This document shows positions 856 through 59,119 of a DNA stretch of 64,000 bases, in pieces (positions within the stretch are counted from its first letter, which is position 1; every line of letters begins with the position of its first letter). The stretch lies in assembly GCA_037893225.1 (NCBI GenBank), contig JAZGUH010000158.1, positions 1,054,001-1,118,000 on the forward strand, in the 5' to 3' direction. The stretch comes from Hippasteria phrygiana. Its lineage: Eukaryota; Echinodermata; Asteroidea; Valvatida; Goniasteridae. The position numbers were made by a program, and so were the translations under genes. The notes beneath the pieces are model-generated. The model was not told the origin of the DNA. It was given only the letters and a program-made list of their open reading frames with translations, and searched no databases.

Positions 856-3800
856 TTTAAGGAGTTTATGGTTCTCATTTGTTCAGGCAGATTATTCCAT
901 ATACTGGCACCACTCACAGCGAAACTTGTCACGTAGCATTCCTTTTTGGCGAAAGGAACTTTCAGTGCCATTTGGGTCGATTGTCGTGTTTCACGAATCA
1001 CTGTAAGTGGTGTGAACAGATTTGTCATGTACAAAGGAGTCATTTTGTTAAGGCTTTTGAAAACAAGGATAGCCTTTTTGGACTGAACTCTATCATTAAA
1101 AGGAATCCAATTTAGTCTGGTAAACATATCAGCTGAGGGGGTGAGGGAGGTACGTTTAAGGATTATCCGTGCGGCTCTTTTAGACATTTGTTAAGGGTAT
1201 TGTCGTGAGATATGTACCTTCCTCCCCACACCGTACAGCAATACTCTAAAGGTGGCATAACTAAACTTATAAAGAGTGTGTGCAGGCTGCTTTGGGGAAC
1301 GTAATCACGAATTATGTTTAACACACCCAATTTAGACGAAACAGTCTTCCTTACGTATTCAACATGTGTACCCCAACTTAATGTTTCATCAACAACTACA
1401 CCCAAGCATTTACAAGATTTCACTTTTTCGATAACCTTATCAGCAATGCACACGTTCAGGTCGACGTTTGATATTTTTTGCCTTGAACCAATAAGCATAC
1501 ATTTGGTTTTGTTGGCATTTAATGCTAGTTTGTTTCTTAGGCACCAGTTGTGAATACTAGCAAGAGCTACATTCAAGTTCCTTTCTATTTCGTTAATACT
1601 AGAGGAGCTACACGTTAAAGGGACACATTGCCTTCAAATGTCATGAAATTTTGCTGTTTGGAAATGTTCCTTATCTTTTATAAGAGTTGTTCATGCAAAC
1701 AAAACACGTATAGTGTGTTGTAATTAGTGAGTAGTGATTACAAAACCAAAAATTGGCCTCTGACCCCTGACATCTGCCCTGCGAAACATAGACTTATTTC
1801 CAGTAGTAAATACCACCGTCTAAATAATGCGCAAAATACGCTGTAAGAGTCTTTAGGCTGGCGCCGCAGCCAGTGGCCTTGTAAAACTATCAGATGATCG
1901 CCAGGTACCATTCTCTACCTCGTGACACATATCGCCAGTGCTGCGCGCCGTGCCACAGTACATCAAAATGGATCAACAGAACGTACTTCAACCAGCTGCG
2001 ACTGGAAATACGACTGGTGAATACTGTCCGCCATTTTGTGGAGTCAAAAATTTGGTTCTACAAAATGGCGGACCGTTATTTGTCACGAAATTAAACAAAA
2101 ACCACGCAATTTGAAGGGATAGTTATGTGAATCTTTATATTATACTTTTAAAAAAGCTTCCCAACCATATCCATTTCAGTTTTATAGCCCAAATCGAAAA
2201 ATCCAAAGCAATGTGTCCCTTTAACGTGGAGTCATCTGCATACATAAATAAGTTGCAATTTTGGGGTATACAAGATGGAAAATCAATACTATAAACAATG
2301 AATAAAAGTGGCCCTAAGATCGACCCTTGTGGAACGCCTATGTCTATGGGCAACCCCTTCGATATTGTGCCCTTAATATTTACAGACTGACTACGACCGC
2401 CTAGGTACGACTTAAACCAATTAATTACAGAAGATGACAAATTCAGCTTCTTCAATTTGCCTATAGTAGGATTACATGATCCACACAATCAAAAGCTTTA
2501 CTGAGATCTATGAACACGCTACCTGTAACCTTACCTTGCTCCATAGCCTCAAAACACTTGTTTGTTAAATCGTGTAGAGTGCTTTCAGTTGAGTGCAAGG
2601 GTCTAAATCCCGATTGGCAACTAGGTAACAAATTGTTATCATCGAGGTGCCGAGTGCACCCATCTTTCTAGAATAGAGATAATTGGCAGTATAGAAATAG
2701 GCCGATAATTACTTGTACTACATTTATCTCCTCCCTTGTGAATTGGTGTTACCAAGGCGTGTTTCCAATCTTTAGGGTATTGCTCGCATCTTATGGAGAG
2801 GTTAAAAATATATGTTAAAGATTTAGTAATATAAGGGGAAGCAATTTTAATCATTTTAACACTGATGCCATCCGGACCTGTTGCTTTCCCAACCGACATG
2901 GATGATATTTGCTTTTGAACGAACTCTTCTGTAATATTAGGTACAGTGCATTCTTCAAGTTCTTCCAGAGAATCAACGATAGAGGCGTAGGTATCATTGT
3001 TTTCAAGTTCGCCCGATGGGCAATTTCTAGCTGTACGTTTTCCTATTGTAGAAAAGTGTTCATTTAATGTATCAGCAATGTCAGTGGGATCGTCAATATT
3101 TTCTCCATTTGGGGAAGTGATACAATTTGGAGCAATTTTCTGTTTCTTAGGAAGTACCTCCTTTAGCTTTTTCCATAGCATAGATGAATTGCTTTTATTT
3201 TCTTCTATGGCTGATGTATAGTATTCACTCTTCTTAGTGCGGATTTTATTAGTTACATTGTTCCGCAGCTTTTTGTAAGAGTCCCAATCGATCTGTGAGC
3301 CTGAGCGTTTTGCGATTTTGTGTGCACGATCCCGCTGTCTCATAAGTTTAAGAATTTCGCAATCGAGCCAAGGTAAAGAGGCACCCCGAATACGTTTAGT
3401 TTTGATTGGTGCATGAAAGTTAATAATACTCATAAATATGGAGTGCCATTTGCACCACGCTTCATCAACATCATAAGAGTCTAGTACATCTTGCCATGGT
3501 GCATTAAGGAGGTCGTCTTTAAATGCATCATTGTCTATATTTGTAAGACATCGAAAGTTTATTGAGCGACCTTTAATTTTTGGTGTTTTCCAACTATGTT
3601 GACCATAAACAAGATAATGGTCACTGATTAGGACTGGTAATACACCACATTCCTTTATTAGCTCTGGATGGGAGCTGAAAATGAGATCGATTATTGTTTG
3701 AGTGGACTCAGTGACCCGTGTTGAGTCATGTATGAGTTGCGCCAATTGGAATAAACCAAAACAAGAAATAATTGGGTTTGAGTTCATACTATCATCGTCA

Positions 3801-4102
3801 ACTGAAACATCATAATTAAAGTCCCCAGTTGCAATAATTTCTTTACATTCACAGGAGGCCTTATTAATAATATCACTTAGTTTATCAATGAATTCAACAG
3901 AGCTTGAAGGTGGCCTATAAATAGAACTAATAAGCACAGGCTGTCTTTGTTTACACTTAATTTCAACCCATATGCACTCGACATCATCTGTTTCAAGATC
4001 CTCACGACGAGTGAAAGTTAAATTGTTTCGGATGTACATGGCAACCCCACCACCATGTCGGTTCCTGTCTTTTCTGACAATGGAAACATTTGGTAATGTG
4101 AT
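845..4102 (-). mobile_element. CR1/Jockey-group non-LTR retrotransposon, copy 1, 5'-truncated
   Basis: Minus-strand element with the C-terminal part of an AP-type endonuclease (GDFNYD near 3815, SDHYLV near 3620) and a reverse transcriptase (GKATGPDG near 2880, YADD near 2250), followed by the cysteine/tryptophan-rich C-terminal region of the Jockey/CR1 group. The 466-codon frame at 4039-2639 is the longest intact piece. Small deletions, for instance near 2650 where copy 2 is longer, and a 602-bp DNA element at 1619-2220 break the rest. Homology to copy 2 (28.17-31.2 kb) stops at about 4102, the usual 5' truncation of such elements. Not functional as it stands. Confidence 0.9.
1619..2220. mobile_element. 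602-bp non-autonomous DNA element, TTAA target (Kolobok/T2-like)
   Basis: Ends are AGGGACACATTGC and its exact reverse complement (13 bp). TTAA flanks both sides (1615-1618 and 2221-2224). Copy 2 of the host retrotransposon has a single TTAA at the same point (near 28915), so this is a clean insertion with a TTAA duplication. Known background: TTAA is the target of piggyBac and Kolobok, and T2/Kolobok MITEs start AGGRR, which fits. No coding capacity is visible. Confidence 0.88.
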
Positions 4103-4353
4103 GCCGACGAGAGGGATTCTATATTTAAGAAAAAAGGGTTGTTATTCTGAACCATCATTTATTCTGTTTCGCGAAAGCTCATTATGTATGTTAAATGTAT
4201 GTACGTGACCCCGTGACGTACACGTGTAGAGTCGGTTGATGCTACAGCCAAACACTATAGGCATGTACGTACGTGGAGTTGATGCTGCTGGAAGAGTTTT
4301 TGTCTAATTTTGATATTATTTCAGTATAAGCATGGTTCTGAGATAATCATTAT

Positions 4354-4630
4354 GCCTCATCGTGTGTAGTTGGGGGTTGCACGAGGAACAGCGACAAAAA
4401 CCCTGACCTAACCTTACTGCGATTCACATTGCTGAATAGAGTTCAAAGGCGACAGTGGGTCCGCTTTGTAGACAATACAAGATCTGATTTTTGGCTGTCG
4501 AAACGGTCGAAAAAATGTGCAGAACATTTCGCCAAAGACTATATTGATGATAGTGTTAGTATGAAAACTAAGCTGGGTTTGAAGGCACAATTCCGTTTGA
4601 AGGTTGGAGCCATTCCAACTCTGAAGGCAC
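4354..4630 (+). pseudogene. THAP zinc-finger fragment, third copy
   Basis: Reading from 4363 the frame gives CVVGGC, a basic region with WVRFVD, then KKCAEHF and GAIPTL. These are the C2CH ligands (C-x4-C … C-x2-H) and the AVPTL-type tail of a THAP domain. The natural start, MPHR immediately upstream at 4354, is one base out of frame, so the domain has lost its start codon by a one-base deletion. No following exon is recognisable; at about 4810 the sequence changes to the repeated block that precedes the GPCRs. It could be a relic of a THAP transposase or of a host THAP gene. Confidence 0.62.
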
Positions 4631-4812
4631 AGAGCATTCAAATCCTGTCCTGGACTCACGCGCACTACCAGACCACGACGACGTTGCCTGCGGTTGCCGG
4701 CTCCAGCAGCCAGAGCCCCGGCCGTCTCCCTCCCTGTCCACGCTCGCTTGACTCAACATGCATTGTACACGCACAGTAGCGCATGCTACTTGTATTATCA
4801 TGGTATTATCGT

Positions 4813-6567: not shown

Positions 6568-7546
6568 TCAAAGTTGCGCTTGTGCTTGCGTCTCATGCAC
6601 CTCCAACCCAACCGATTGGTGTTTGGTTACCAGACAGGTGCATCTTGTTTTGGCCGATAGCAAACCACACAGTGCTCGTCGCAGATCCTGGTTGCGTAGG
6701 TAGTAGATGATAACATTCATCCAGCCGTTCGACAGCCACAAGGCATCCGTGAAAATGCTGGTGGGATAGGACGTGTAAATCGGCAGGTGCAATGGTAAAA
6801 TGACGGCAGTAGGAATCCAGGTGAGTATTAATGTCGCAGTTATGATGGCGATGGTTGTGGTCGCTCTGGCGTTGAACTGTTGCGATTCCCGCCTCCCGCT
6901 TTGGCCGGAGATGTATTGGGCGTGACGGTGTGCTATCAGATAAATACGCACGTAGATAATGATTACAACAATTAGTGCAAGTGAAATGTAGAAACAAGGG
7001 ATGTACATGTACAAACCCCACTCACGCCTTATGTGCGTGCATATGCGAGGGTGCTGTGGTAACACAATACTGCCGCCGTAAACCCATGCGATAACATTAG
7101 CAATATGCTGGATACAGCCCAGGCGCTGCTCACTGCGATCTTCGATCGGCGTGGTGTCACCAAGGTAGGATAGCGTAGTGGGTAGGAAATCGCCAGGTAA
7201 CGATCTATCGTCAACAGCAAGATCGAAGCGACACCCAGCACGTAAAATATGTGTGCGACCACATCTATAGCCGCACAAAGGAAGTCTCCCAGCAACCAGG
7301 CTCCCGCGTAAAATTCGGTCAAATGCGGTAACCCGAATATTGCAGTAAACAGATCACTCAGGGTGAGCGAAGCCAGGAAAATTGTTGTGGTCTGCTTGAT
7401 GCTGGTGGCACGTGCTAAGGTGAACAGCATCAGCGGATTGAGTAGAAGGTTCAGAGCGATCGTCAGCGTCATAAAAATGGCAACGAAAACACCAAATGCG
7501 TTGTCCAGATTCCAATATCAACCTCCTCTCCGGTAGAATTGGTCAT
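6568..7546 (-). pseudogene. Rhodopsin-class GPCR, copy 1, frameshifted
   Basis: Closely related to the intact receptors at 15795-16787 and 22883-23869, but broken. The ATG lies at 7546-7544. A one-base loss near 7495 (AAATG where copy 2 has AAAAGG) shifts the frame after about 14 codons. A second one-base loss near 7080 shifts it in the second extracellular loop. The TM2-TM4 part (7472-7029) and TM5-tail part (7278-6568) each read well. A further small change shortens the C-terminus. DRY, the TM6 W-x-P and the TM7 N-x-x-x-Y are all still encoded, so loss looks recent. Confidence 0.88.
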
Positions 7547-15794: not shown

Positions 15795-16787
15795 TCAAAG
15801 TTGCGCTTGTGCCACATCGGCTGTCTCATGCACCTCCAACCCAACCGATTGGTGTTTGGTTACCAGACAGGTGCATCTTGTTTGGGCCGATAGCAAACCA
15901 CACAGTGCTCGTCGCAGATCCTGGTTGCGTAGGTAGTAGATGATAACATTCATCCAGCCGTTCGACAGCCACAAGGCATCCGTGAAAATGATGGTGGGAT
16001 AGGACGTGTAAATCGGCAGGTGCAATGGTAAAATGACGGCAGTAGGAATCCAGGTGAGTATTAATGTCGCAGTTATGATGGCGATGGTTGTGGTCGCTCT
16101 GGCGTTGAACTGTTGCGATTCCCGCCTCCCGCTTTGGCCGGAGATGTATTGGGCGTGACGGTGTGCTATCAGATAAATACGCACGTAGATAATGATTACA
16201 ACAATTAGTGCAAGTGAAATGTAAAAACAAGGGATGTACATGTACATACCCGACTCACGCCTTGTGTGCGTGCATATGCGAGGGTGCTGTGGTAACACAA
16301 TACTGCCGTCGTAAAACCCATACAATAACAATAACATTAGCAATACGCTGGATACAGCCCAGACGCTACCCACTGCGATCTTCGATCGGCGTGGTGTCAC
16401 CAAGGTAGGATAGCGTAGTGGGTAGGAAATCGCCAGGTAACGATCTATCGTCAACAGCAAGATCGAAGCGACACCCAGCACGTAAAATATGTATGCGACC
16501 ACACCAATAGCCGCACAAAGGAAGTCTCCCAGCAACCAGGCTCCCGCGTAAAATTCGGTCAAATGCGGTAACCCGAATATTGCAGTAAACAGATCACTCA
16601 GGGTGAGCGAAGCCAGGAAAATTGTTGTGGTCTGCTTGATGCCGGTGGCACGTGCTAAGGTGAACAGCATCAGCGGATTGAGTAGAAGATTCAGAGCGAT
16701 CGTCAGCGTCATAAAAATGGCAACGAAAACACCAAAAGGCGTTGTCCAGATTGCAATATCAACCTCCTCTCCGGTAGAATTGGTCAT
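15795..16787 (-). CDS. Intronless rhodopsin-class G-protein-coupled receptor, copy 2 (orphan)
   Basis: 330 residues in one exon, ATG at 16787. Seven hydrophobic segments in the usual order. Class A landmarks: N-glycosylation site NST at 3-5, TM1 N-x-x-x-N-P near 33-38, LTLSD with Asp65 in TM2, Cys91 and Cys172 for the TM3-loop disulphide, DRY at 115-117, W-I-P at 246-248 in TM6, and N280-x-x-x-Y284 in TM7, where the usual NPxxY proline is lost. A short tail has a possible palmitoylation motif (RCTC, 304-307). It should sit in the plasma membrane and signal through G proteins; the ligand cannot be told. It has two extra leucine codons near 154 relative to copy 3. Intronless tandem receptors recall the expanded GPCR sets of sea urchins. 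Confidence 0.9.
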   Translation of the reverse strand: MTNSTGEEVDIAIWTTPFGVFVAIFMTLTIALNLLLNPLMLFTLARATGIKQTTTIFLASLTLSDLFTAIFGLPHLTEFYAGAWLLGDFLCAAIGVVAYIFYVLGVASILLLTIDRYLAISYPLRYPTLVTPRRSKIAVGSVWAVSSVLLMLLLLYGFYDGSIVLPQHPRICTHTRRESGMYMYIPCFYISLALIVVIIIYVRIYLIAHRHAQYISGQSGRRESQQFNARATTTIAIITATLILTWIPTAVILPLHLPIYTSYPTIIFTDALWLSNGWMNVIIYYLRNQDLRRALCGLLSAQTRCTCLVTKHQSVGLEVHETADVAQAQL

Positions 16788-22882: not shown

Positions 22883-23869
22883 TCAAAGTTGCGCTTGTGC
22901 CACATCGGCTGTCTCATGCACCTCCAACCCAACCGGTTGGTGTTTGGTTACCAGACAGGTGCATCTTGTTTTGGCCGATAGCAAACCACACAGTGCTCGT
23001 CGCAGATCCTGGTTGCGTAGGTAGTAGATGATAACATTCATCCAGCCGTTCGACAGCCACAAGGCATCCATGAAAATGATGGTGGGATAGGACGTGTAAA
23101 TCGGCAGGTGCAATGGTAAAATGACGGCAGTAGGAATCCAGGTGAGTATTAATGTCGCAGTTATGATGGCGATGGTTGTGGTCGCTCTGGCGTTGAACTG
23201 TTGCGATTCCCGCCTCCCGCTTTGGCCGGAGATGTATTGGGCGTGACGGTGTGCTATCAGATAAATACGCACGTAGATAATGATTACAACAATTAGTGCA
23301 AGTGAAATGTAAAAACAAGGGATGTACATGTACATACCCGACTCACGCCTTGTGTGCGTGCATATGCGAGGGTGCTGTGGTAACACAATACTGCCGTCGT
23401 AAAACCCATACAATAACATTAGCAATACGCTGGATCCAGCCCAGACGCTACTCACTGCGATCTTCGATCGGCGTGGTGTCACCAAGGTAGGATAGCGTAG
23501 TGGGTAGGAAATCGCCAGGTAACGATCTATCGTCAACAGCAAGATCGAGGCGACACACAGCACGTAAAATATTTGTAATACCATACCAATAGCCGCACAA
23601 AGGAAGTCTCCCAGCAACCAGGCTCCCGCGTAAAATTCGGTCAAATGCGGTACCCCGAATATTGCAGTAAACAGATCACTCAGGGTAAGCGAAGCCAGGA
23701 AGATTTTGGTGGTCTGCTTGATGCCGGTGGCACGTGCTAAGGTGAACAGCATCAGCGGATTGAGTAGAAGGTTCAGAGCGATCGTCAGCGTCATAAAAAT
23801 GGCAAGGAAAACACCAAAAGGCGTTGTCCAGATTCCAATATCAACCTCCTCTCCGGTAGAATTGGTCAT
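22883..23869 (-). CDS. Intronless rhodopsin-class G-protein-coupled receptor, copy 3 (orphan)
   Basis: 328 residues, one exon, ATG at 23869. Same layout as copy 2: TM2 Asp65, TM3 Cys91, DRY at 115-117, TM6 W-I-P and TM7 N-x-x-x-Y without the proline. Differences cluster in TM3 (GMVLQIFYVLCVAS, where copy 2 has GVVAYIFYVLGVAS), in TM4 and in one TM1 residue. TM3 lines the ligand pocket in class A receptors, so the two may differ in ligand preference; this is an inference. The frame is free of breaks and the upstream TATA word is kept, so it is probably expressed. Confidence 0.9.
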   Translation of the reverse strand: MTNSTGEEVDIGIWTTPFGVFLAIFMTLTIALNLLLNPLMLFTLARATGIKQTTKIFLASLTLSDLFTAIFGVPHLTEFYAGAWLLGDFLCAAIGMVLQIFYVLCVASILLLTIDRYLAISYPLRYPTLVTPRRSKIAVSSVWAGSSVLLMLLYGFYDGSIVLPQHPRICTHTRRESGMYMYIPCFYISLALIVVIIIYVRIYLIAHRHAQYISGQSGRRESQQFNARATTTIAIITATLILTWIPTAVILPLHLPIYTSYPTIIFMDALWLSNGWMNVIIYYLRNQDLRRALCGLLSAKTRCTCLVTKHQPVGLEVHETADVAQAQL

Positions 23870-28169: not shown

Positions 28170-31100
28170 TTAAGGAGTTTATGGTTATCATTTGTTCAGG
28201 CAGATTATTCCATATACTGGCACCACTCACAGCGAAACTTGTCACGTAGCATTTATTTTTGGCGAAAGGAAATTCAGTGCCATTTGGGTCGATTGTCGTG
28301 TTTCACGAATCACTGTAAGTGGTGTGAACAAATTTGTCATGTACAAAGAAGTCATTTTGTTAAGGCTTTTAAAAACAAGGATAGCCTTTTTGGACTGAAC
28401 TCTTTCTTTAAAAGGAATCCAATTTAGTCTGGCAAACAAATCAGCTGGGGGGAGGGGGGGGGTGAGGGAGGTACATTTAAGGATTATCCGTGCGGCTCTT
28501 TTTAGACATTTGTTGAGGGTATTGTCGTGAGATATGTACCTTCCTTTCCACACCGTACAGCAATACTCTAAAGATGGCATAACTAAACTTACAAAGAATG
28601 TGTGCAGGCTGCTTTGGGGAACGTAATCACGAATTCTGTTTAACACACCCAATTTAGACGAAACAGTCTTCCCCAACTTAATGTTTCATCAACAACTACA
28701 CCCAAGCATTTACAAGATTTCACTTTTTCGATAACCTTATCAGCAATGCATACGTTCAGGTCGACGTTGGATATTTTTTGCCTTGAACCAATAAGCATAC
28801 ATTTGGTTTTGTTGGCATTTAATGCTAGTTTGTTTCTTAGGCACCAGTTGTGAATACTAGCAAGAGCTACATTCAAGTTCCTTTCTATTTCGTTAATACT
28901 AGAGGAGCTACACGTTAACGTGGAGTCATCCGCATACATAATCACGTTGCAATTTTGGGGTATACAAGATGGAAAATCACTACTATAAACAATGAATAAA
29001 TGTGGCCCTAAGATCGACCCTTGTGGAACGCCTATGTCTATGGGCAAGACCTTCGATATTGTGCCCTTAATATTTACAGACTGACTACGACCGCCTAGGT
29101 ACGACTTAAACCAATTATTACAGATGACAAATTCAGCTTCTTCATTTTGCCTAGTAGGACTACATGATCCACACAATCAAAAGCTTTACTGAGATCTATG
29201 AACACGCTACCTGTAACTTCACCTTGCTCCATAGCCTCAAAACACTTGTTTGTTAAATCGTGTAAGAGTGCTTTCAGTTGAGTGCAAGGGTCTAAATCCC
29301 GATTGGCAACTAGGTATCAAATTGTTATCATCGAGGTAGCTATATACTGCGGAGTGCACCCATCTTTCTAGAATCTTAGAGATAATTGGCAGTATAGAAA
29401 TAGGCCGATAATTACCTGTACTACATTTATCTCCTCCCTTGTGAATTGATGTTACCAAGGCGTGTTTCCAATCTTTAGGGTATTGCTCGCATCTTATGGA
29501 GAGGTTAAAAATATAAGTTAAAGATTTAGTAATATAAGGGGAAGCAATTTTAATCATTTTAACACTGATGCTATCCGGACCTGTTGCTTTCCCAACCGAC
29601 ATGGATGATATTTGCTTTTGAACGAACTTTTCTGTAATATTAGGTACAGTGCATTCTTCAAGTTCATCCAGAGAATCAACGATAGAGGCGTATATCATTG
29701 TTTTCAAGTTCGCGCGATGGGCAATTTCTAGCTGTACGTTTTCCTATTGTAGAAAAGTGTTCATTTAATGTATCAGCAATGTCGGTGGGATCGTCAATAT
29801 TTTCTCCATTTGGGGAAGTGATAGAATTTGGAGCAATTTTCTGTTTCTTAGGAAGTACCTCCTTTAGTTTTTTCCATAGCATAGATGAATTGCTTTTATT
29901 TTCTTCTATGGCTGATGTATAGTATTCACTCTTCTTAGTGCGGATTTTATTAGTTACATTGTTCCGCAGCTTTTTGTAAGAGTCCCAATCGATCTGTGAG
30001 CCTGAGCGTTTTGCGATTTTGTGTGCACGATCCCGCTGTCTCATAAGTTTAAGAATTTCGCAATCGAGCCAAGGTAAAGAGGCACCCCGAATACGTTTAG
30101 TTTTGATTGGCGCATGAAAGTTAATAATACTCATAAATATGGAGTGCCATTTGCACCACGCTTCATCAACATCATAAGAGTCCAGTACATCTTGCCATGG
30201 TGCATTAAGGAGGTCGTCTTTAAATGCATCATTATCTATATTTGTAAGACATCGAAAATTTATTGAGCGACCTTTAATTTTTTGTGTTTTCCAACTATGT
30301 TGACCCATGGAGGAAGGAATCCTTCCTCCATGGTTGACCATAAACAAGATAATGGTCACTGATTAGGACTGGTAATACACCACATTCCTTTATTAGCTCT
30401 GGATGGGAGCTGAAATTGAGATCGATTATTGTTTGAGTGGACTCAGTGACACGTGTTGAGTCACGTATGAGTTGCGCCAATTGGAATAAACCAAAACAAG
30501 AAATAATTGGGTTTGAGTTCATACTACCATCGTCAACTGAGACATCATAATTAAAGTCCCCAGTTGCAATAATTTCTTTACATTCACAGGAGGCCTTATT
30601 AATAATATCACTTAGTTTATCAATGAATTTAACAGAGCTTGAAGGTGGCCTACAAATAGAACTAATAAGCGCAGGCTGTCTTTGTTTACACTTAATTTCA
30701 ACCCATATGCACTCGACATCATCTGTTTCAAGATCCTCACGACGAGTGAAAGTTAAATTGTTTCGGATGTGTACATGGCAACCCCACCACCATGCCGGTT
30801 CCTGTCTTTTCTGACAATGGAAAAATTTTGTAATGTGATTTCATCATCGGAGATTGAGGCATTGCAGAAAGTTTCATTTAGACAGATGATATCGAATGGA
30901 TTTGTAGACATTAAAATGTTAAATTGGTCAAATTTGTTTATTAAACTTCTCACATTAAAATGGGCGAATGAGAATCCCCCGGAGCTTTGGTTGTAGATAA
31001 CGCCATCAATTAAGTCTATCGTAGATTTTTGCCTTTTGGATTGAGCAGCTCTTTGACCGTTGTTAGGTATTGGTTCCATTCCTGGCCTTGATAGTGTGTC

Positions 31101-37500: not shown

Positions 37501-40500
37501 GCCATCCTGTGTAAAGGGGGTATCAGCAACTCACCAGCCATCCAAGGCAAGTAGCATCCGCAGTTCGCTAAGACATTCTCTGCGAGACATTCCACCAAGC
37601 AGGTATTGGGCGTGTAGCTGGTGTAATATTTCAGACCGCCGTCTGTACAGTTTGTCAAGTACGGATGTTTTTTGCTTCGAATCTGAAATATTTACAAATC
37701 CCCATTCCAACCTCGTTCAGCAATCTCGTGGACGCACCCCTCTCTACCCGTGCACAAAATGGCACCGCACGTGTCTATGTTCTGTTGAGAAACGACGAAA
37801 AAGTGGACATTCTTTGATTCCACTATGGGCGAGGACGCGAAGCGTCCGAGCCTATTCGAATCAAAGATGTCCACCTTCCGAGTCGTTTCTCGACTTAAAC
37901 AACGCCCATTTCTCAATACATTATCAATATTTCAAGAAAACAAAAACATTCCATTCTTACTAATACTTTGAGGTACCGGTATGAGATGAATTAAGTCCAT
38001 TGTTCAGTGGTTGCCTACATTATGTAGATACGTGAAACATTGCCCCGTCGGTCCCCGTGTTCCGTCGAAACAATGGAATAAAAGGTTCAGTTCTTGAACG
38101 CGCTCAATCGAAGTAAGGGCGTTTAGTCTTTACAAATATTCGACACTTTTGTGAATAGACTAGAGTGGAGTCACAAGAGTACCGGTAGTTAAAAGAAAAC
38201 TCCCCGCCAAATCCAATGGCAATGCTAAAAAATTAGTCTATTATGCTTAAATTCAAAGAGCGCAACAATGAATGGGGAGAATGGGAATCCCTGCAGGGAT
38301 ACCTGTTTTGATTCATTTGTTCAGGTTTTGTTGAACAGCTTTATTTGTTTTATTTGCATGTTTGATGGATTATGATCAAGTTGTTTGACTGTAATTTATC
38401 GTTTAATTGTACATGTATATGCATCGTGCTTCTTGTTTGTTTTTTGTCATAAAAACATAATATCAAATAAAGGTCGTTTCAATAGGCATCTTACCACTGT
38501 TTTGGTGAGAGGTATAACTGTTGTAAATCCTGGTGCCGCTTGGATAATACCGGGGTTGACAAATGTAGCCACGTCATATCGACTATGGATCAATATCTGA
38601 GGATTAATGATTAGGCCCCTATATTACAAAAGGTCGTTTTACATAGCGCATCACAAACAAGGTTCTCATAGACTCATATAAAACGCCACAAATCCACACA
38701 TTAAGATCTAGGGACGAGGTATTTTAAATAGACCTAATGAACTTGACGCTCCAAAACTAACATCACATTCGGATTGGATTTTTCAACTCAACCGAAAAAG
38801 GGTGGGAAAAACATTCGCCACTTCTAAAGTTGTGAAGCTTATCAATGGTCCCTGTCACTCAAAATACAAATCATGGTTTCCATAATGCAGATGTATCCTT
38901 ACCACTGTGAATAAATCGATATTAGGTGTGAAAATCAATTGGATTGACTGAATATACCCTGAAGCCAGCTGTATCGAAGGGTGTGGCTAAGTAATCATAC
39001 TGCTCCATGTTTAACCTCATCCAAAGCCCCTCCTCCGAAGTGGTCCCGTTGATGACGTAGAGCGAGTCCCCGCCTCCTGGCTGGCTCATGTCTCCAGCGT
39101 TGAAGGTATGACATGGTCCTAGGTCCGTCCACGTTCTCTGTCAGGGTAAAGCAAGTCTGTAATTCATTTAATGGTATAAATGACCAATGTTATCTTTGCG
39201 GTCGAACGATGAATTTCTCTTTTTAACGGAGAACCCCCAAAATAGAGCAACAGCAGCAGCGGCGGCGGCGGCAGCAGCGGAAGCAGTAGTAAAACAAACA
39301 AAAAAATAGCAAAACAGTAGGCTGGCAACAGCAACAGCAGCAGCAGCAAAAGCAGTAGCAACAGTAGAAGCAGCATCAACAACAAAAACAGCAACAACAA
39401 AAACAATAACATATCGGCAACAGCAGAAGCAGTAGTAGTAGCAGCAGCAACAACAAAAACAGCAACAACAAAAACAATAACATATCGGCAACAGCAGAAG
39501 CAGTAGTAGTAGCAGCAGCAACAACAAAAACAGCAACAACAAAAACAATAACATATCGGCAACAGCAGAAGCAGTAGTAGTAGCAGCAGCAACAACAAAA
39601 ACAGTAACAGCAACAACAATAACATATCGGCAACAGCAGAAGCAGTAGTAGTAGCAGCATCAACAACAAAAACAGCAACAACAAAAACAATAACATATCG
39701 GCAACAGCAGAAGCAGTAGTAGTAGCAGCAGCAACAACAAAAACAGTAACAGCAACAACAATAACATATCGGCAACAGCAGAAGCAGTAGTAGTAGCAGC
39801 ATCAACAACAAAAACAGCAACAACAAAAACAATAACATATCGGCAACAGCAGAAGCAGTAGTAGTAGCAGCAGCAACAACAAAAACAGTAACAGCAACAA
39901 CAATAACATATCGGCAACAGCAGAAGCAGTAGTAGTAGCAGCAGCAACAACAAAAACAGTAACAGCAACAACAATAACATATCGGCAACAGCAGAAGCAG
40001 TAGTAGTAGCAGCATCAACAACAAAAACAGCAACAGCAAAAACAATAACATATCGGCAACAGCAGAAGCAGTAGTAGTAGCAGCAGCAACAACAAAAACA
40101 GCAACAACAAAAACAATAACATATCGGCAACAGCAGAAGCAGTAGTAGTAGCAGCAGCAACAACAAAAACAGCAACAACAAAAACAATAACATATCGGCA
40201 ACAGCAGAAGCAGTAGTAGTAGCAGCAGCAACAACAAAAACAGCAACAACAAAAACAATAACATATCGGCAACAGCAGAAGCAGTAGTAGTAGCAGCAGC
40301 AACAACAAAAACAGCAACAACAAAAACAATAACATATCGGCAACAGCAGAAGCAGTAGTAGTAGCAGCAGCAACAACAAAAACAGCAACAACAAAAACAA
40401 TAACATATCGGCAGCAGCATCAACAACAAAAACAGCAACAACAAAAACAATAACATATCGGCAACAGCAGAAGCAGTAGTAGTAGCAGCATCAACAACAA

Positions 40501-43318
40501 AAACAGCAACAACAAAAACAATAACATATCGGCAACAGCAGAAGCAGTAGTAGTAGCAGCAGCAACAACAAAAACAGCAACAGCAACAACAATAACATAT
40601 CGGCAACAGCAGAAGCAGTAGTAGTAGCAGCATCAACAACAAAAACAGCAACAACAAAAACAATAACATATCGGCAACAGCAGAAGCAGTAGTAGTAGCA
40701 GCAGCAACAACAAAAACAGCAACAGCAACAACAATAACATATCGGCAACAGCAGAAGCAGTAGTAGTAGCAGCATCAACAACAAAAACAGCAACAACAAA
40801 AACAATAACATATCGGCAACAGCAGAAGCAGTAGTAGTAGCAGCAGCAACAACAAAAACAGTAACAGCAACAACAATAACATACCGGCAACAGCAGAAGC
40901 AGTAGTAGTAGCAGCAGCAACAACAAAAACAGCAACAACAAAAACAATAACATATCGGCAACAGCAGAAGCAGTAGTAGTAGCAGCAGCAACAACAAAAA
41001 CAGCAACAACAAAAACAATAACATATCGGCAACAGCAGAAGCAGTAGTAGTAGCAGCAGCAACAACAAAAACAGCAACAACAAAAACAATAACATATCGG
41101 CAACAGCAGAAGCAGTAGTAGTAGCAGCAGCAACAACAAAAACAGCAACAACAAAAACAATAACATATCGGCAGCAGCATCAACAACAAAAACAGCAACA
41201 ACAAAAACAATAACATATCGGCAACAGCAGAAGCAGTAGTAGTAGCAGCATCAACAACAAAAACAGCAACAACAAAAACAATAACATATCGGCAACAGCA
41301 GAAGCAGTAGTAGTAGCAGCAGCAACAACAAAAACAGCAACAGCAACAACAATAACATATCGGCAACAGCAGAAGCAGTAGTAGTAGCAGCATCAACAAC
41401 AAAAACAGCAACAACAAAAACAATAACATATCGGCAACAGCAGAAGCAGTAGTAGTAGCAGCAGCAACAACAAAAACAGCAACAGCAACAACAATAACAT
41501 ATCGGCAACAGCAGAAGCAGTAGTAGTAGCAGCATCAACAACAAAAACAGCAACAACAAAAACAATAACATATCGGCAACAGCAGAAGCAGTAGTAGTAG
41601 CAGCAGCAACAACAAAAACAGTAACAGCAACAACAATAACATACCGGCAACAGCAGAAGCAGTAGTAGTAGCAGCATCAACAACAAAAACAGCAACAACA
41701 AAAACAATAACATATCGGCAACAGCAGAAGCAGTAGTAGTAGCAGCAGCAACAACAAAAACAGTAACAGCAACAACAATAACATATCGGCAACAGCAGAA
41801 GCAGTAGTAGTAGCAGCAGCAACAACAAAAACAGTAACAGCAACAACAATAACATATCGGCAACAGCAGAAGCAGTAGTAGTAGCAGCATCAACAACAAA
41901 AACAGCAACAACAAAAACAATAACATATCGGCAACAGCAGAAGCAGTAGTAGTAGCAGCAGCAACAACAAAAACAGTAACAGCAACAACAATAACATATC
42001 GGCAACAGCAGAAGCAGTAGTAGTAGCAGCATCAACAACAAAAACAGCAACAACAAAAACAATAACATATCGGCAACAGCAGAAGCAGTAGTAGTAGCAG
42101 CAGCAACAACAAAAACAGTAACAGCAACAACAATAACATATCGGCAACAGCAGAAGCAGTAGTAGTAGCAGCATCAACAACAAAAACAGCAACAACAAAA
42201 ACAATAACATATCGGCAACAGCAGAAGCAGTAGTAGTAGCAGCAGCAACAACAAAAACAGCAACAACAAAAACAATAACATATCGGCAACAGCAGAAGCA
42301 GTAGTATAGTAGCAGCAGCAACAACAAAAACAGCAACAACAAAAACAATAACATATCGGCAACAGCAGAAGCAGTAGTAGTAGCAGCAGCAACAACAAAA
42401 ACAGCAACAACAAAAACAATAACATATCGGCAACAGCAGAAGCAGTAGTAGTAGCAGCAGCAACAACAAAAACAGCAACAACAAAAACAATAACATATCG
42501 GCAACAGCAGAAGCAGTAGTAGTAGCAGCAGCAACAACAAAAACAGCAACAACAAAAACAATAACATATCGGCAACAGCAGAAGCAGTAGTAGTAGCAGC
42601 AGCAACAACAACAAAAACAGCAACAACAAAAACAATAACATATCGGCAACAGCAGAAGCAGTAGTAGTAGCAGCAGCAACAACAAAAACAGCAACAACAA
42701 AAACAATAACATATCGGCAACAGCAGAAGCAGTAGTAGTAGCAGCAGCAACAACAAAAACAGCAACAACAAAAACAATAACATATCGGCAACAGCAGAAG
42801 CAGTAGTAGTAGCAGCAGCAACAACAAAAACAGCAACAACAAAAACAATAACATATCGGCAACAGCAGAAGCAGTAGTAGTAGCAGCAGCAACAACAAAA
42901 ACAGCAACAACAAAAACAATAACATATCGGCAACAGCAGAAGCAGTAGTATAGTAGCAGCAGCAACAACAAAAACAGCAACAACAAAAACAATAACATAT
43001 CGGCAACAGCAGAAGCAGTTGTAGTAGCAGCAGCAACAACAAAAACAGCAACAACAAAAACAATAACATATCGGCAACAGCAGAAGCAGTAGTAGTAGCA
43101 GCAGCAACAACAAAAACAGCAACAACAAAAACAATAACATATCGGCAACAGCAGAAGCAGTAGTAGTAGCAGCAGCAACAACAAAAACAGCAACAACAAA
43201 AACAATAACATATCGGCAACAGCAGAAGCAGTAGTAGCAGCAGCAAAAACAATAACAAAAGCATGAGCAACGGCAACAGCAAAGCATTTAGCAGCAAAAT
43301 AATTCAGCAACAGCAGTA

Positions 43319-43355
<37 letters not shown>

Positions 43356-43716
43356 GCAGCATCAGCACAAACAGACAAACAAACACAAACAAACAAACAC
43401 CCCAACAAACACAAACACACAACACACAAACACACAAACACAAACACAGTGTCGTACTTCCCCAATATGTCCGAGGACAATGCTTTGTGTTTCTTATTGT
43501 TCCTTTAATATAACCAACCCCCATAGACTAAGCACGTATCCTTACGTTCGAGGACCGATTTCAACAAAAGACTCTACGTTCGAGGACTGAAAGGTTTCTT
43601 TGTGTTTTCTTTCTTCTCTTGTCCTCGGAGATATATACAGTGCACGTACACAAAGACAAACACAAACAGACACAAACACAGACAGACAGACAGACAGCCC
43701 GCCCGCCCGACAGCCC

Positions 43717-43747
<31 letters not shown>

Positions 43748-46700
43748 CAACACACGAAATTATTCTTCTCGGTTCTCAAAGTTATTAAACTGCTCAAAAA
43801 CTCACCTGAAAATCCTGAGGGCCGCAGATGTAATTCTGCTTCCATTGACATTCCAGTAGCATGTCCTCGATCCTGTGACCCCACCTGGCACCCACCTCAT
43901 TAACGTCCCAGTCAGGGAAGCTAAGATTCTCACCATAGTAATCTGGATCCACGGTGGTCTGAGGGAAGGAAGACTGGGTGACGTAAGGCAGGAGTATGGG
44001 CACCACGGACTCCCAGCCCGATTCGATCACGGCAGACCTCTTGAAGGCGTTGTAGTTGCAGATGGTGATAGCGGGAAAGGTGAGGTTGGGCTGGGTGATG
44101 AAGCTCAGTGAGGTCGTCGTGTCGTACTTGAGAAAAGTTTTGAAGTGGTCGACGGTGATGACGATGAAAGCGATAAACGCCACGAGGAACAGAATCAACC
44201 AGACAAATCTACGGAAAAGGACAACTGCAGTTTGTTTGTATCCAATTTTCAAAGTGAACAAAGAAAACTGGCAGGCGGGATTTCAACCTGCGACCACCGG
44301 TTTACCGGACCGGTGGCTCTACCAACTGAGCCATCTTGCTATTATGTTGGCAGTGTCCCAATTTTTCAGTAAGCTTGTTCGGGGGGCGCTGGACAGAAGT
44401 AATAATATTGCCGTATAGCCAGTGATCACGTCCGATGCAACCTGGGAAGTGGCAATGTTTTCATGTATAGTTAACTCACCAAATCAAGTCCAAATCATTT
44501 ATCCAATTTGAATCTTCTTTTACTTAAAACAAAATTATATTCTCAAAGTAACAATATATATTTAGAGTTAACAGGTGATGAGGCGAGAACGTGAAATTGG
44601 ACTGAACCAGGATTCGAACCAGAGACCTCTAGACTGTCGTTCTGGCGCTCTATTATAACTGAGCTATTCATGCCCATGCATGTATGTTGGGGTTCCGAAT
44701 AGGCCTATGTCATTTTTTTTATTCCTTACTCGGTGTACAAGCTATAGGCTAATGGCAATCGAATTCCCCGGGAATCATTGGGTTAGATCATTGCATGCCG
44801 TTTCCATTTCGGTAATTTTTTCAAGCAGTGGAATATATAGTGAAATGTTAAACAATAAAAGTGCCAATCCCTCGGAAGTGATTTTCTATTCAAAATGGGC
44901 AGGAGGATTAGAAGATGTGGTTTAACAACGAGGGTCCAAAATTACATCAAGAGCCAAGAGTTCAGGGTTGTTAAAAATCGTGATTAAATTTCTATTCTTT
45001 TTACCACTGTACCATTAATTTTTGGATAAAACATTTTTCTTTTTAAATCAGTCAATTTAAATGACCATCACTGAAAGTCAAGAATAACCACACACAATTG
45101 TTCATGAAATCAGTACTGAAATCCCTTTCATTTATCATAGCCTATTCTTTTCTAAAATAGATTTCAGTTTGTCTTAAACCATCATACTGCACATTTCTCA
45201 TCCAAGTTGATAACAGGAACCCCCCCCCCCCCCCACTCTACACAACCATGGTGGAATAAAAATATTTAATACAGCCACTATAAATATCAGCATGTAGGCA
45301 TGTACAAACCGTTACCCTAATAACCCTAGGGTGTGTGAAACATCATGAGAATTGAGGACTGTTAGGGTTAAGACATTATGGATTGCAAATCAAACAATGT
45401 TAGGTTTAATAATCAGCTTCCATCTCTGATCTTGTTTTCAATTATATAATCATGTTTATGTGCTCACATTACATTGAGCTTATGTGCCTATCAATTGTTT
45501 CCCCCACCCCCCCCCCCCCAGGCCACCCCACCTCTGAGGTGGGGATTGTCACTTTTGAAGTGACAAAATCCCCATCTCTGGGGCAAAAATCTAGCGACAA
45601 TCCCAACCTAAATGGGTGGGGACACCCCCACCTTATAGGGTAGGAATTAGAATGTTGATGCTCTTGTGTATGGTTTAGGTTTTGATTAAAAAAAAGCCTT
45701 GCAAAAGGATCGGGTGGGCTGGGGTGGGGTGGGGGGTTGGGTCGGGGGAATCAATTGATAGGCGCATTGGGAAAATTAAGGTCAAAGGTCGTTTGGGGCG
45801 GGAACATTGGGTGCGTTCGAGTAGCTCATCACCCGGATCGACTCGGGTTAGCCCCGTGCCGTTCGATTAGGTCTGACGTCATACCTGGGGCTCACTCGGG
45901 TCAGCCACCACAGACCCAGGGCCGTTTTCCAAACCCCAGCTTAGGCTCCGTCTTCGGCTCCATCACCATTGCCAAACTGCATGAACGAAGCCAAAGACGG
46001 AGACTGTTCATATAAGAGAACAAAATCCACTTTTAAGTTATTGGACTTAGCAAACTACATTGCGACATTAAAAAACAACAGGTATGTCGTAGATGGAGGG
46101 CAGAGTTTTTAATTTGTTGTGGCAATTTTTTGGTTAAAACGACAACGAAGATGATAAAACCATGATAAAACGCAACACGAAAATAAAGATGGCGAGGACC
46201 GCCCTGATTCGCAAGACATCAACCGCAAAACACCGGCGTAAGAAAATTGCATTTTCTACCGCAAGAAACTGTTCAGAATTACAAAAAATGATGTCATTAG
46301 AATTGAGAGAAGTATACTTTAGGTTGAAAAATTCATTTTGGAATGATAAAAATAACCTTGACTCGAAATGGATCAAATATAAAGAGGTGTCCGTAACTAC
46401 ACAATCGCCGACTCATATTCCTCCATGGCCGACTCAAGTGCAAGGTGACATCAACAGGAGAGGGCGTTTGACCGTTCTATTATTAGCCCAGCTCTCGTGG
46501 CTGACCCGTCTGCCTTCACCCGAGTCGATCCGGGTAAGCTATCGAACGCACCCTTTAAAAAGTGTAAAATTTTAACACAGGCTCGCTGTCGTCTGCTCTA
46601 CCGGCAAAATCTTGACCATGACGACATGACAATTATAAAATTCACAATTTACACACAGTCCCCAACTGTTGTTACGGCCGAAAATACACTCTTTGCTTTT

Positions 46701-58803: not shown

Positions 58804-59018
58804 AGGAGAATGTCAATTTTTTGGATCCTTCATGGTGGGGCCACATGTGCTGGTTATTTGGTCACGTGGGTGAAAAAAGGTACAAGGCAGTGTAATATCT
58901 GTTCTCCATACATTCCGTGTTCAGTGAGAATGTAAATAAAGAAATAATCCCAAACAGTAGAAAGACAAACATTGATGAGCTCAGCTTCAGATATGGGTGT
59001 TTAGGGAGAAGGGTAGAG

Positions 59019-59048
59019 CATGGAGGAAGGATATATCCTTCCTCCATG
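59019..59048. mobile_element. 30-bp palindromic micro-insert with 7-bp target duplication
   Basis: A perfect 30-bp palindrome whose arms begin CATGGAGGAAGGA, between two GGTAGAG (59012-59018, 59049-59055). Same arms as the 27-bp insert at 30306. Confidence 0.85.
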
Positions 59049-59119
59049 GGTAGAGATAGCGACAAAATGTACAAGTCAAAGTGTATAAAACTGAACTGAC
59101 CTACAATCCCCAGAAAATT

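What the first reader, a model, noticed from the sequence alone, without database searches (positions are those of the whole stretch)
30299..30339. A 27-bp perfect palindrome behaves as a mobile element, with a proven 7-bp target duplication
Copy 2 of the CR1-like element has GTTGACC, 27 bp of palindrome (arms CATGGAGGAAGGA), then GTTGACC again. Copy 1 has one GTTGACC at 3598-3604 and nothing else, so both insertion and duplication are read directly. At 27 bp it is far below the size of any DNA transposon or MITE family I know; it looks like two terminal repeats with nothing between. Its arms recur at 59019 and, in part, at 46414, each with a 7-bp duplication. Either a transposase moves bare termini in trans, or a repair process inserts a hairpin oligonucleotide.
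Basis: seen in the sequence. Interest (0 to 1): 0.9.

Follow-up and report, generated by a model that had tools for sequence, protein, structure and literature searches.

The report
Excision scars of a P-like transposon
The tiny palindrome is not a mobile element but the scar left when a larger cut-and-paste transposon, very probably a relative of the fruit-fly P element, jumped out, and this genome carries thousands of such places.

Summary
30306-30332 is a 27-bp palindrome between two GTTGACC copies; the paralogous copy has one GTTGACC and no insert. Genome-wide there are 31 exact 27-mers, 774 relatives with 2-32 bp between the same 13-bp arms and 4968 places with 8-bp arms; reversed-pattern controls 0, 0 and 4. 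Of 77 non-duplicate fetched copies, 68 have exact 7-bp duplications; the eighth base agrees at chance (17 of 68). A 27-bp mobile element it is not. Centres differ between sites, some copies keep one arm only, and arms keep at most 19 nt (B type) or 21 nt (A type) of a longer end. Intact elements with that end exist: 28-bp inverted repeats, mostly about 2 kb, 7-bp duplications. The copies are excision footprints: duplication plus both broken tips, end-joined, as published for Drosophila P elements, whose transposase leaves 17-nt 3' tails. P/THAP9-type transposases are abundant here. I found none between these ends, so P membership is inferred. A few targets bear serial scars.

The parts
30299..30305 (.). 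left copy of 7-bp target duplication GTTGACC
30306..30332 (.). 27-bp palindromic excision scar, arms CATGGAGGAAGGA
30333..30339 (.). right copy of GTTGACC
   Evidence: 94.8% identity to copy 1; strand from the long ORFs
2601..4102 (-). copy 1 of the repeat, site without insert
   Evidence: strand
3598..3604 (.). single GTTGACC of the empty site
59012..59018 (.). left 7-bp duplication GGTAGAG
59019..59048 (.). 30-bp palindromic scar, centre TATA (same form as L020, L029 and others, read as a microhomology join of B-type ends)
59049..59055 (.). right duplication GGTAGAG
46407..46413 (.). left 7-bp duplication GCCGACT
46414..46427 (-). 14-bp scar CATATTCCTCCATG: one arm of a CATGGAGGAATA-type end, other arm trimmed to CAT
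46428..46434 (.). right duplication GCCGACT

Best explanation
The palindromes are excision footprints of cut-and-paste DNA transposons with termini CATGGAGG..., very probably of the P superfamily. Step 1 (shown by full elements and by the empty site in copy 1): an element with long inverted repeats inserts and duplicates 7 bp of target (weak consensus GTTNAAC). Step 2 (inferred from junctions and from Drosophila P): the transposase cuts each end with a long stagger, so each chromosomal end keeps about 17-21 nt of the element as a 3' single strand. Step 3 (mechanism inferred; junction types shown): the two tails, inverted copies of one another, are trimmed, paired at short microhomologies or extended with filler, and joined. 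The site keeps duplication, arm, inverted arm, duplication. Step 4 (arrangement shown at a few sites, order of events inferred): the duplicated target stays attractive and is hit again, giving serial scars.
For: 31 + 774 palindromes with 13-bp arms, controls 0; 4968 with 8-bp arms, control 4. Exact 7-bp duplications at 68 of 77, next-outer 7-mers exact at 0 of 77, eighth base 17 of 68. Seven end pairs read: one dropped as an inverted duplication, 3 of the other 6 with exact and 3 with 6/7 duplications. 23 inward pairs among the listed 28-mer matches, 16 of them 1.97-2.12 kb apart. Junctions: 27-45 bp total, arms keeping 13-21 nt, 15 of 77 with a 4-nt overlap (ATAT/TATA), others blunt, 1-nt or filler. 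One-armed scars with exact duplications: L116, L123, L124, L008, L010. Of 89 A-type places, 70 run into the inverted second arm; the other 19 share no continuation beyond 21 nt except three places on C45 and two on C793. Drosophila P junctions acccagac-CATGATGAAATAAC-(AT)-GTTATTTCATCATG-acccagac and 17-nt 3' tails: PMC2895639, passages and table rows seen. P/THAP9 transposases in this genome: 86 PF21787 matches, some of them pieces of one copy; PF12017, PF21787, PF21788, PF21789 in 3 of 3 ORFs tested; one of them matches PDB 6p5a, P transposase, E 3e-24.
Against: No P-transposase match and no listed THAP match lies inside any of the listed TIR pairs. None of the 30 P-transposase loci fetched (L080-L109, 3.3-3.4 kb each) contains the 13-mer within 1 mismatch; six have it at 2 mismatches, internally. 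Their own ends were not reached. Nine of 77 scars lack an exact duplication. Of 20 A-type loci (of 310 matches), six have no downstream duplication and one has 5/7. I read these as deletion or mutation. The stagger length is inferred, not measured, and the A-type template was itself only 21 nt long.
Confidence: 0.87

Rival explanations
1. The 27-30 bp palindrome is itself a minimal mobile element (bare termini moved in trans by a transposase).
For: Hundreds of copies with a shared 13-bp arm, exact duplications at 68 of 77 examined.
Against: Centres and lengths differ from site to site (27-45 bp). One-armed copies with intact duplications exist. Intact long elements with the same ends exist. 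Drosophila P is said to need at least 138 and 216 bp of end sequence to move (PMC1562414, passage seen; the same passage notes P-MITEs with less than 100 bp).
Confidence: 0.03
2. Footprints of a cut-and-paste transposon that is not of the P superfamily but also makes a long stagger inside its terminal repeat.
For: No transposase was found physically between these ends.
Against: Footprints of other superfamilies as described in PMC3878927 (passages): 2-3 nt for Tc1/mariner, none for piggyBac, hairpin-derived for hAT. 7-bp duplications with a GT...AC consensus match Galileo and the CATG start matches P. P transposases are abundant here.
Confidence: 0.1
3. Insertion of a hairpin oligonucleotide by a repair process, or an assembly/cloning artefact.
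For: A perfect palindrome between direct repeats.
Against: The arm sequence recurs at thousands of places and equals the end of real elements. The same scar with the same duplication is present in two slightly diverged loci, L018 and L054.
Confidence: 0.005

Closest known systems
Drosophila melanogaster P element excision footprints (Chan, Yu and McVey 2010, PMC2895639; passages seen)
   Same: Target duplication, up to 17 nt of each terminal repeat as a palindrome, central 1-3 nt microhomology or templated filler, one-sided losses; termini begin CATG.
   Different: 8-bp instead of 7-bp duplication. Experimental products from one locus; here natural scars at many loci. Retained ends reach 19 nt (B type) or 21 nt (A type) here.
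Galileo (P superfamily, Drosophila; PMC2775673 passages; abstracts in listing)
   Same: 7-bp duplication with a GT...AC consensus (GTAGTAC; here GTTNAAC).
   Different: Unusually long, foldback-like terminal repeats; here 28-bp-class ends on mostly about 2-kb elements.
Zebrafish Pdre2 / THAP9 elements (PMC10983969, passages)
   Same: Short terminal repeat (13 bp) starting CAT, THAP9-type transposase, animal outside insects.
   Different: 8-bp duplications; repeat CATACCTGTCAAC; no scar collection in the passages seen.
Anopheles P elements and P-MITEs (PMC1562414, passages)
   Same: 27-31 bp terminal repeats, non-autonomous relatives.
   Different: 8-bp duplications; the word footprint does not occur in that text.
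Rice DNA-transposon excision footprints (PMC4423477, passages)
   Same: Natural excision sites studied genome-wide, with deletions and filler.
   Different: 94 putative excisions found by comparing two species; footprints were mostly deletions or filler, not paired terminal-repeat tips.

Membership tests
P superfamily (P/Galileo/THAP9 elements) | 7-8 bp target duplication | tested here: met
   68 of 77 scars exactly 7 bp, eighth base at chance; 6 of 6 single elements 6/7 or 7/7
P superfamily (P/Galileo/THAP9 elements) | terminal inverted repeats with CA(TG) ends | tested here: met
   CATGGAGGAAGGATATAGAAGGAGATAG on both ends of the C12, C33, C123 and C223 elements; C28 and C93 vary
P superfamily (P/Galileo/THAP9 elements) | P/THAP9 transposase encoded between those repeats | tested here: inconclusive
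   86 PF21787 and 69 protein matches, none inside a listed TIR pair; only about 100 of 236 and about 100 of 135 TIR matches were listed, and element bodies were not read
P superfamily (P/Galileo/THAP9 elements) | cleavage about 17 nt inside the end, leaving long 3' tails | not testable with these tools
   Needs biochemistry; the retained-end cut-off of 19-21 nt is consistent
P superfamily (P/Galileo/THAP9 elements) | footprint = duplication + tips of both ends | tested here: met
   one search compared with Table 1 of PMC2895639
P superfamily (P/Galileo/THAP9 elements) | subterminal inverted repeats / transposase sites | not tested
   element interiors could not be fetched
MITE or minimal mobile element | copies share one defined body that moves as a unit | tested here: not met
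   centres and lengths vary; one-armed copies

The most novel reading that the evidence does not exclude
A clade of P-like transposons whose departures from this genome were very often mended by end joining rather than copied back, leaving about 5000 or more places that record its history. At least one subfamily (A type, CATGGAGGAAGGAACACTAAC) survives in the assembly only as scars. The transposase cuts with a 19-21 nt stagger, longer than Drosophila's 17. Vacated targets keep their attraction and are struck again, so tandem scars count visits.
Probability: 0.35. Interest if true: 0.68.

Novelty: new member of a known kind. Interest (0 to 1): 0.5.

Why it matters
Excision footprints of P elements are known from laboratory assays. 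Here one genome offers thousands of natural places with defined starting ends. They can serve as a record of how breaks with long 3' tails are repaired in the germline of an animal outside the usual models (microhomology choice, filler, one-sided loss), as presence/absence markers, and as a count of repeated visits to one target. They also explain short palindromes that could be mistaken for a new kind of mobile DNA.

Tried and rejected
Rejected: the palindrome as mobile unit, hairpin-oligonucleotide insertion, artefact (see rivals). Programmed somatic excision was considered and set aside, because a scar with the same centre and duplication sits in two slightly diverged loci (L018/L054), which suggests inheritance; these could be duplicates or two haplotypes, and no reads were available. 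The THAP fragment at 4342-4779 first looked like a source of transposase. THAP places are very numerous and the 150 listed do not fall inside the listed TIR pairs. C173:350702-354308 looked like a 3.6-kb element, but the 15 flanking bases seen on each side are inverted copies of each other, so it was dropped from the element count. 29 of 89 A-type places share one junction and GTC flank, probably one scar carried inside another repeat, so genome-wide counts are places, not independent events. A search for a further terminal type (CATGGAGGAAGAAAACACT) did not complete. only waited; one search was a placeholder.

Full report
OBSERVATION. The paralogue at 2601-4102 (94.8% identical over 1552 aligned columns) has the single GTTGACC and no insert. 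Two further sites have the same anatomy but other lengths: a 30-bp perfect palindrome at 59019-59048 between GGTAGAG copies, and a 14-bp remnant at 46414-46427 between GCCGACT copies.

GENOME-WIDE. The window lies in an unnamed 944-Mb genome. The exact form CATGGAGGAAGGA-N-TCCTTCCTCCATG occurs at 31 places. With 2-32 bases in the middle there are 774 more. With only CATGGAGG and CCTCCATG fixed, 0-30 bases apart, there are 4968. The same patterns read backwards give 0, 0 and 4. I fetched 29 of the 31 and all 50 places that one search listed (of 774), which are those on the first contigs. After removing two duplicates, 68 of 77 carry exact 7-bp direct repeats, four 6/7, two 5/7, one 4/7 and two 1/7 in register. 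L010, L049 and L067 among the low-scoring ones look like shifted or overlapping duplications. The next 7-mers outward never match exactly (0 of 77) and the eighth base matches in 17 of 68, as chance predicts. The duplication has a weak, nearly symmetric preference GTTNAAC (T at position 2 in 56 of 68, A at position 6 in 49 of 68).

NOT A UNIT THAT MOVES. The middles differ: total length 27 to 45 bp. Of 20 A-type loci (the first 20 of 310 matches; one site appears twice; several repeat earlier loci), 13 have exact duplications, some with the second arm partly or wholly missing. L116 is CTCTACC, 19 nt of one arm, CTCTACC; L123 and L124 are similar. One of the 20 has 5/7 and six have no downstream duplication. 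A scan of the window and of the off-centre parts of 70 fetched loci (285 kb with centres) found 11 short inserts with exact 7-bp duplications beginning with the motif within one mismatch (one site twice, two or so probably chance). Forty shuffled motifs gave 0 in 26 runs, 1 in 12, 2 in one and 5 in one. This scan is biased, because many loci were fetched around scars.

THE PARENT. Searching the longer B-type end gave 236 matches, about 100 of them listed. Among these are inward-facing pairs: C12 (2020 bp), C28 (2061), C33 (2023), C123 (3562), C223 (2090), C93 (2546). Their ends read CATGGAGGAAGGATATAGAAGGAGATAG, with variation in C28 and C93. Their flanking 7-mers are identical in 3 of 6 and differ by one base in 3 of 6. 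A seventh pair, C173, has flanks that are inverted copies of each other and was dropped. With up to three mismatches the 28-mer has 135 matches. Among those listed are 23 inward pairs 0.99-8.8 kb long, 16 of them 1.97-2.12 kb, in several sequence variants. So the 13-bp arm is the tip of a family of normal-sized transposons. For the other common end, CATGGAGGAAGGAACACTAAC, all 89 matches were listed (the pattern also required a non-G 14 bases further on). 70 run into the inverted second arm. The other 19 share no continuation except three places on C45 and two on C793. No parent with that end was found.

HOW IT WORKS. Each scar looks like two inverted tips joined. Retained tip lengths run from 13 (the search minimum) to 19 nt for B and 21 nt for A; the A template used was only 21 nt long. 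15 of 77 scars share a 4-nt ATAT/TATA overlap, all of B type; C-containing and G-containing centres suggest further end types not in my templates. This is what joining of long 3' tails by microhomology would give. In Drosophila, P transposase leaves 17-nt non-complementary 3' tails. The published junction table for P{w-a} contains the same classes: duplication, CATGATGAAATAAC, (AT), GTTATTTCATCATG, duplication; one-sided losses; templated filler (PMC2895639, passages and table rows seen; 17-nt statement also PMC7776569, and PMC11368186, passages). Tc1/mariner, piggyBac and hAT leave other footprints (PMC3878927, passages). I infer a P-type excision.

TRANSPOSASE. The genome has 86 matches to the P-transposase RNase H domain, some of them pieces of one copy, with open frames up to 780 aa, and 69 matches to one such protein. 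Three ORFs read as they stand carry PF12017, PF21787, PF21788 and PF21789, and the one compared with solved structures matches P transposase 6p5a. THAP domains are very numerous: 150 scored of 3880 candidates. None of these matches lies between a listed pair of the ends studied here. The link between scar and P transposase therefore rests on anatomy, duplication length, CATG ends and the presence of P genes with long open frames, not on a physical connection.

SERIAL VISITS. Among the 77, three sites show a further copy of the target 7-mer with a second, partial scar. L061 has GTTGCAT-CATGGAGCTG-GTTGCAT-27-mer-GTTGCAT. L016 has ATAAGAC four times. L041 has GCACAAC twice and a 6/7 copy beside a lone arm. 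L112 (from the A-type loci) has a scar at CTTCGTT, one at GTTCAAG and an arm beginning beside the second GTTCAAG. I read this as renewed insertion into a target that excision had left intact.

AGE. Among the 72 scars with 6/7 or 7/7 duplications there are 4 mismatches in 504 position pairs, about 0.8%. The sample is selected for perfect arms and so leans young.

PRINT. Ten paper searches were seen as listings; in nine papers I saw passages. They showed laboratory P footprints and a genome-wide study of 94 rice excisions (PMC4423477), but no description of natural P-type scars across a genome. Subscription papers are mostly absent from that library, so this is weak evidence of novelty.

Noticed in passing
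window 4342-4779 (+): THAP-domain fragment (PF05485) beside the truncated repeat copy 1; the genome has 150 scored and 3880 candidate THAP places, many of the listed ones with about 136-aa frames, as if one THAP-bearing repeat had spread.
   Followed up: partly
window 39164-43297: Long low-complexity repetitive stretch with very strong AT skew (0.636 in 40001-44000) that creates long repetitive ORFs.
   Followed up: no
window 6568-7472, 15795-16787, 22883-23869 (-): Three related loci that read like rhodopsin-type 7TM receptors, about 330 aa, the first split over overlapping frames (no family search run).
   Followed up: no
window 63859 (+) and 45247 (+): CATGGAGGAATAAAAAAATAC and CATGGTGGAATAAAAATATTT look like lone ends of a related element; no partner with an exact duplication found in the window.
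   Followed up: partly
G000 C60, C77, C99, C2 (coordinates): B-type ends continuing TAGCAAAAGT... or TAGCCAAAGT... recur 19-51 kb apart in one orientation; on C60, C77 and C99 the nearest lies 26-33 kb from a P-transposase copy of one family.
   Followed up: no
G000:C173:350687-354323: Two copies of an end facing inward with 15-base flanks that are inverted copies of each other (L143/L144): looks like an inverted duplication of a locus.
   Followed up: partly
A-type places: 29 of 89 places share one junction and GTC flank (the one fetched, L119, has duplication GTCTGAC): probably one scar amplified inside another repeat.
   Followed up: partly
L016 1490-1570, L041 70-140, L061 75-135, L112 1435-1530: Serial scars: several excision footprints at or beside the same 7-bp target.
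   Followed up: partly
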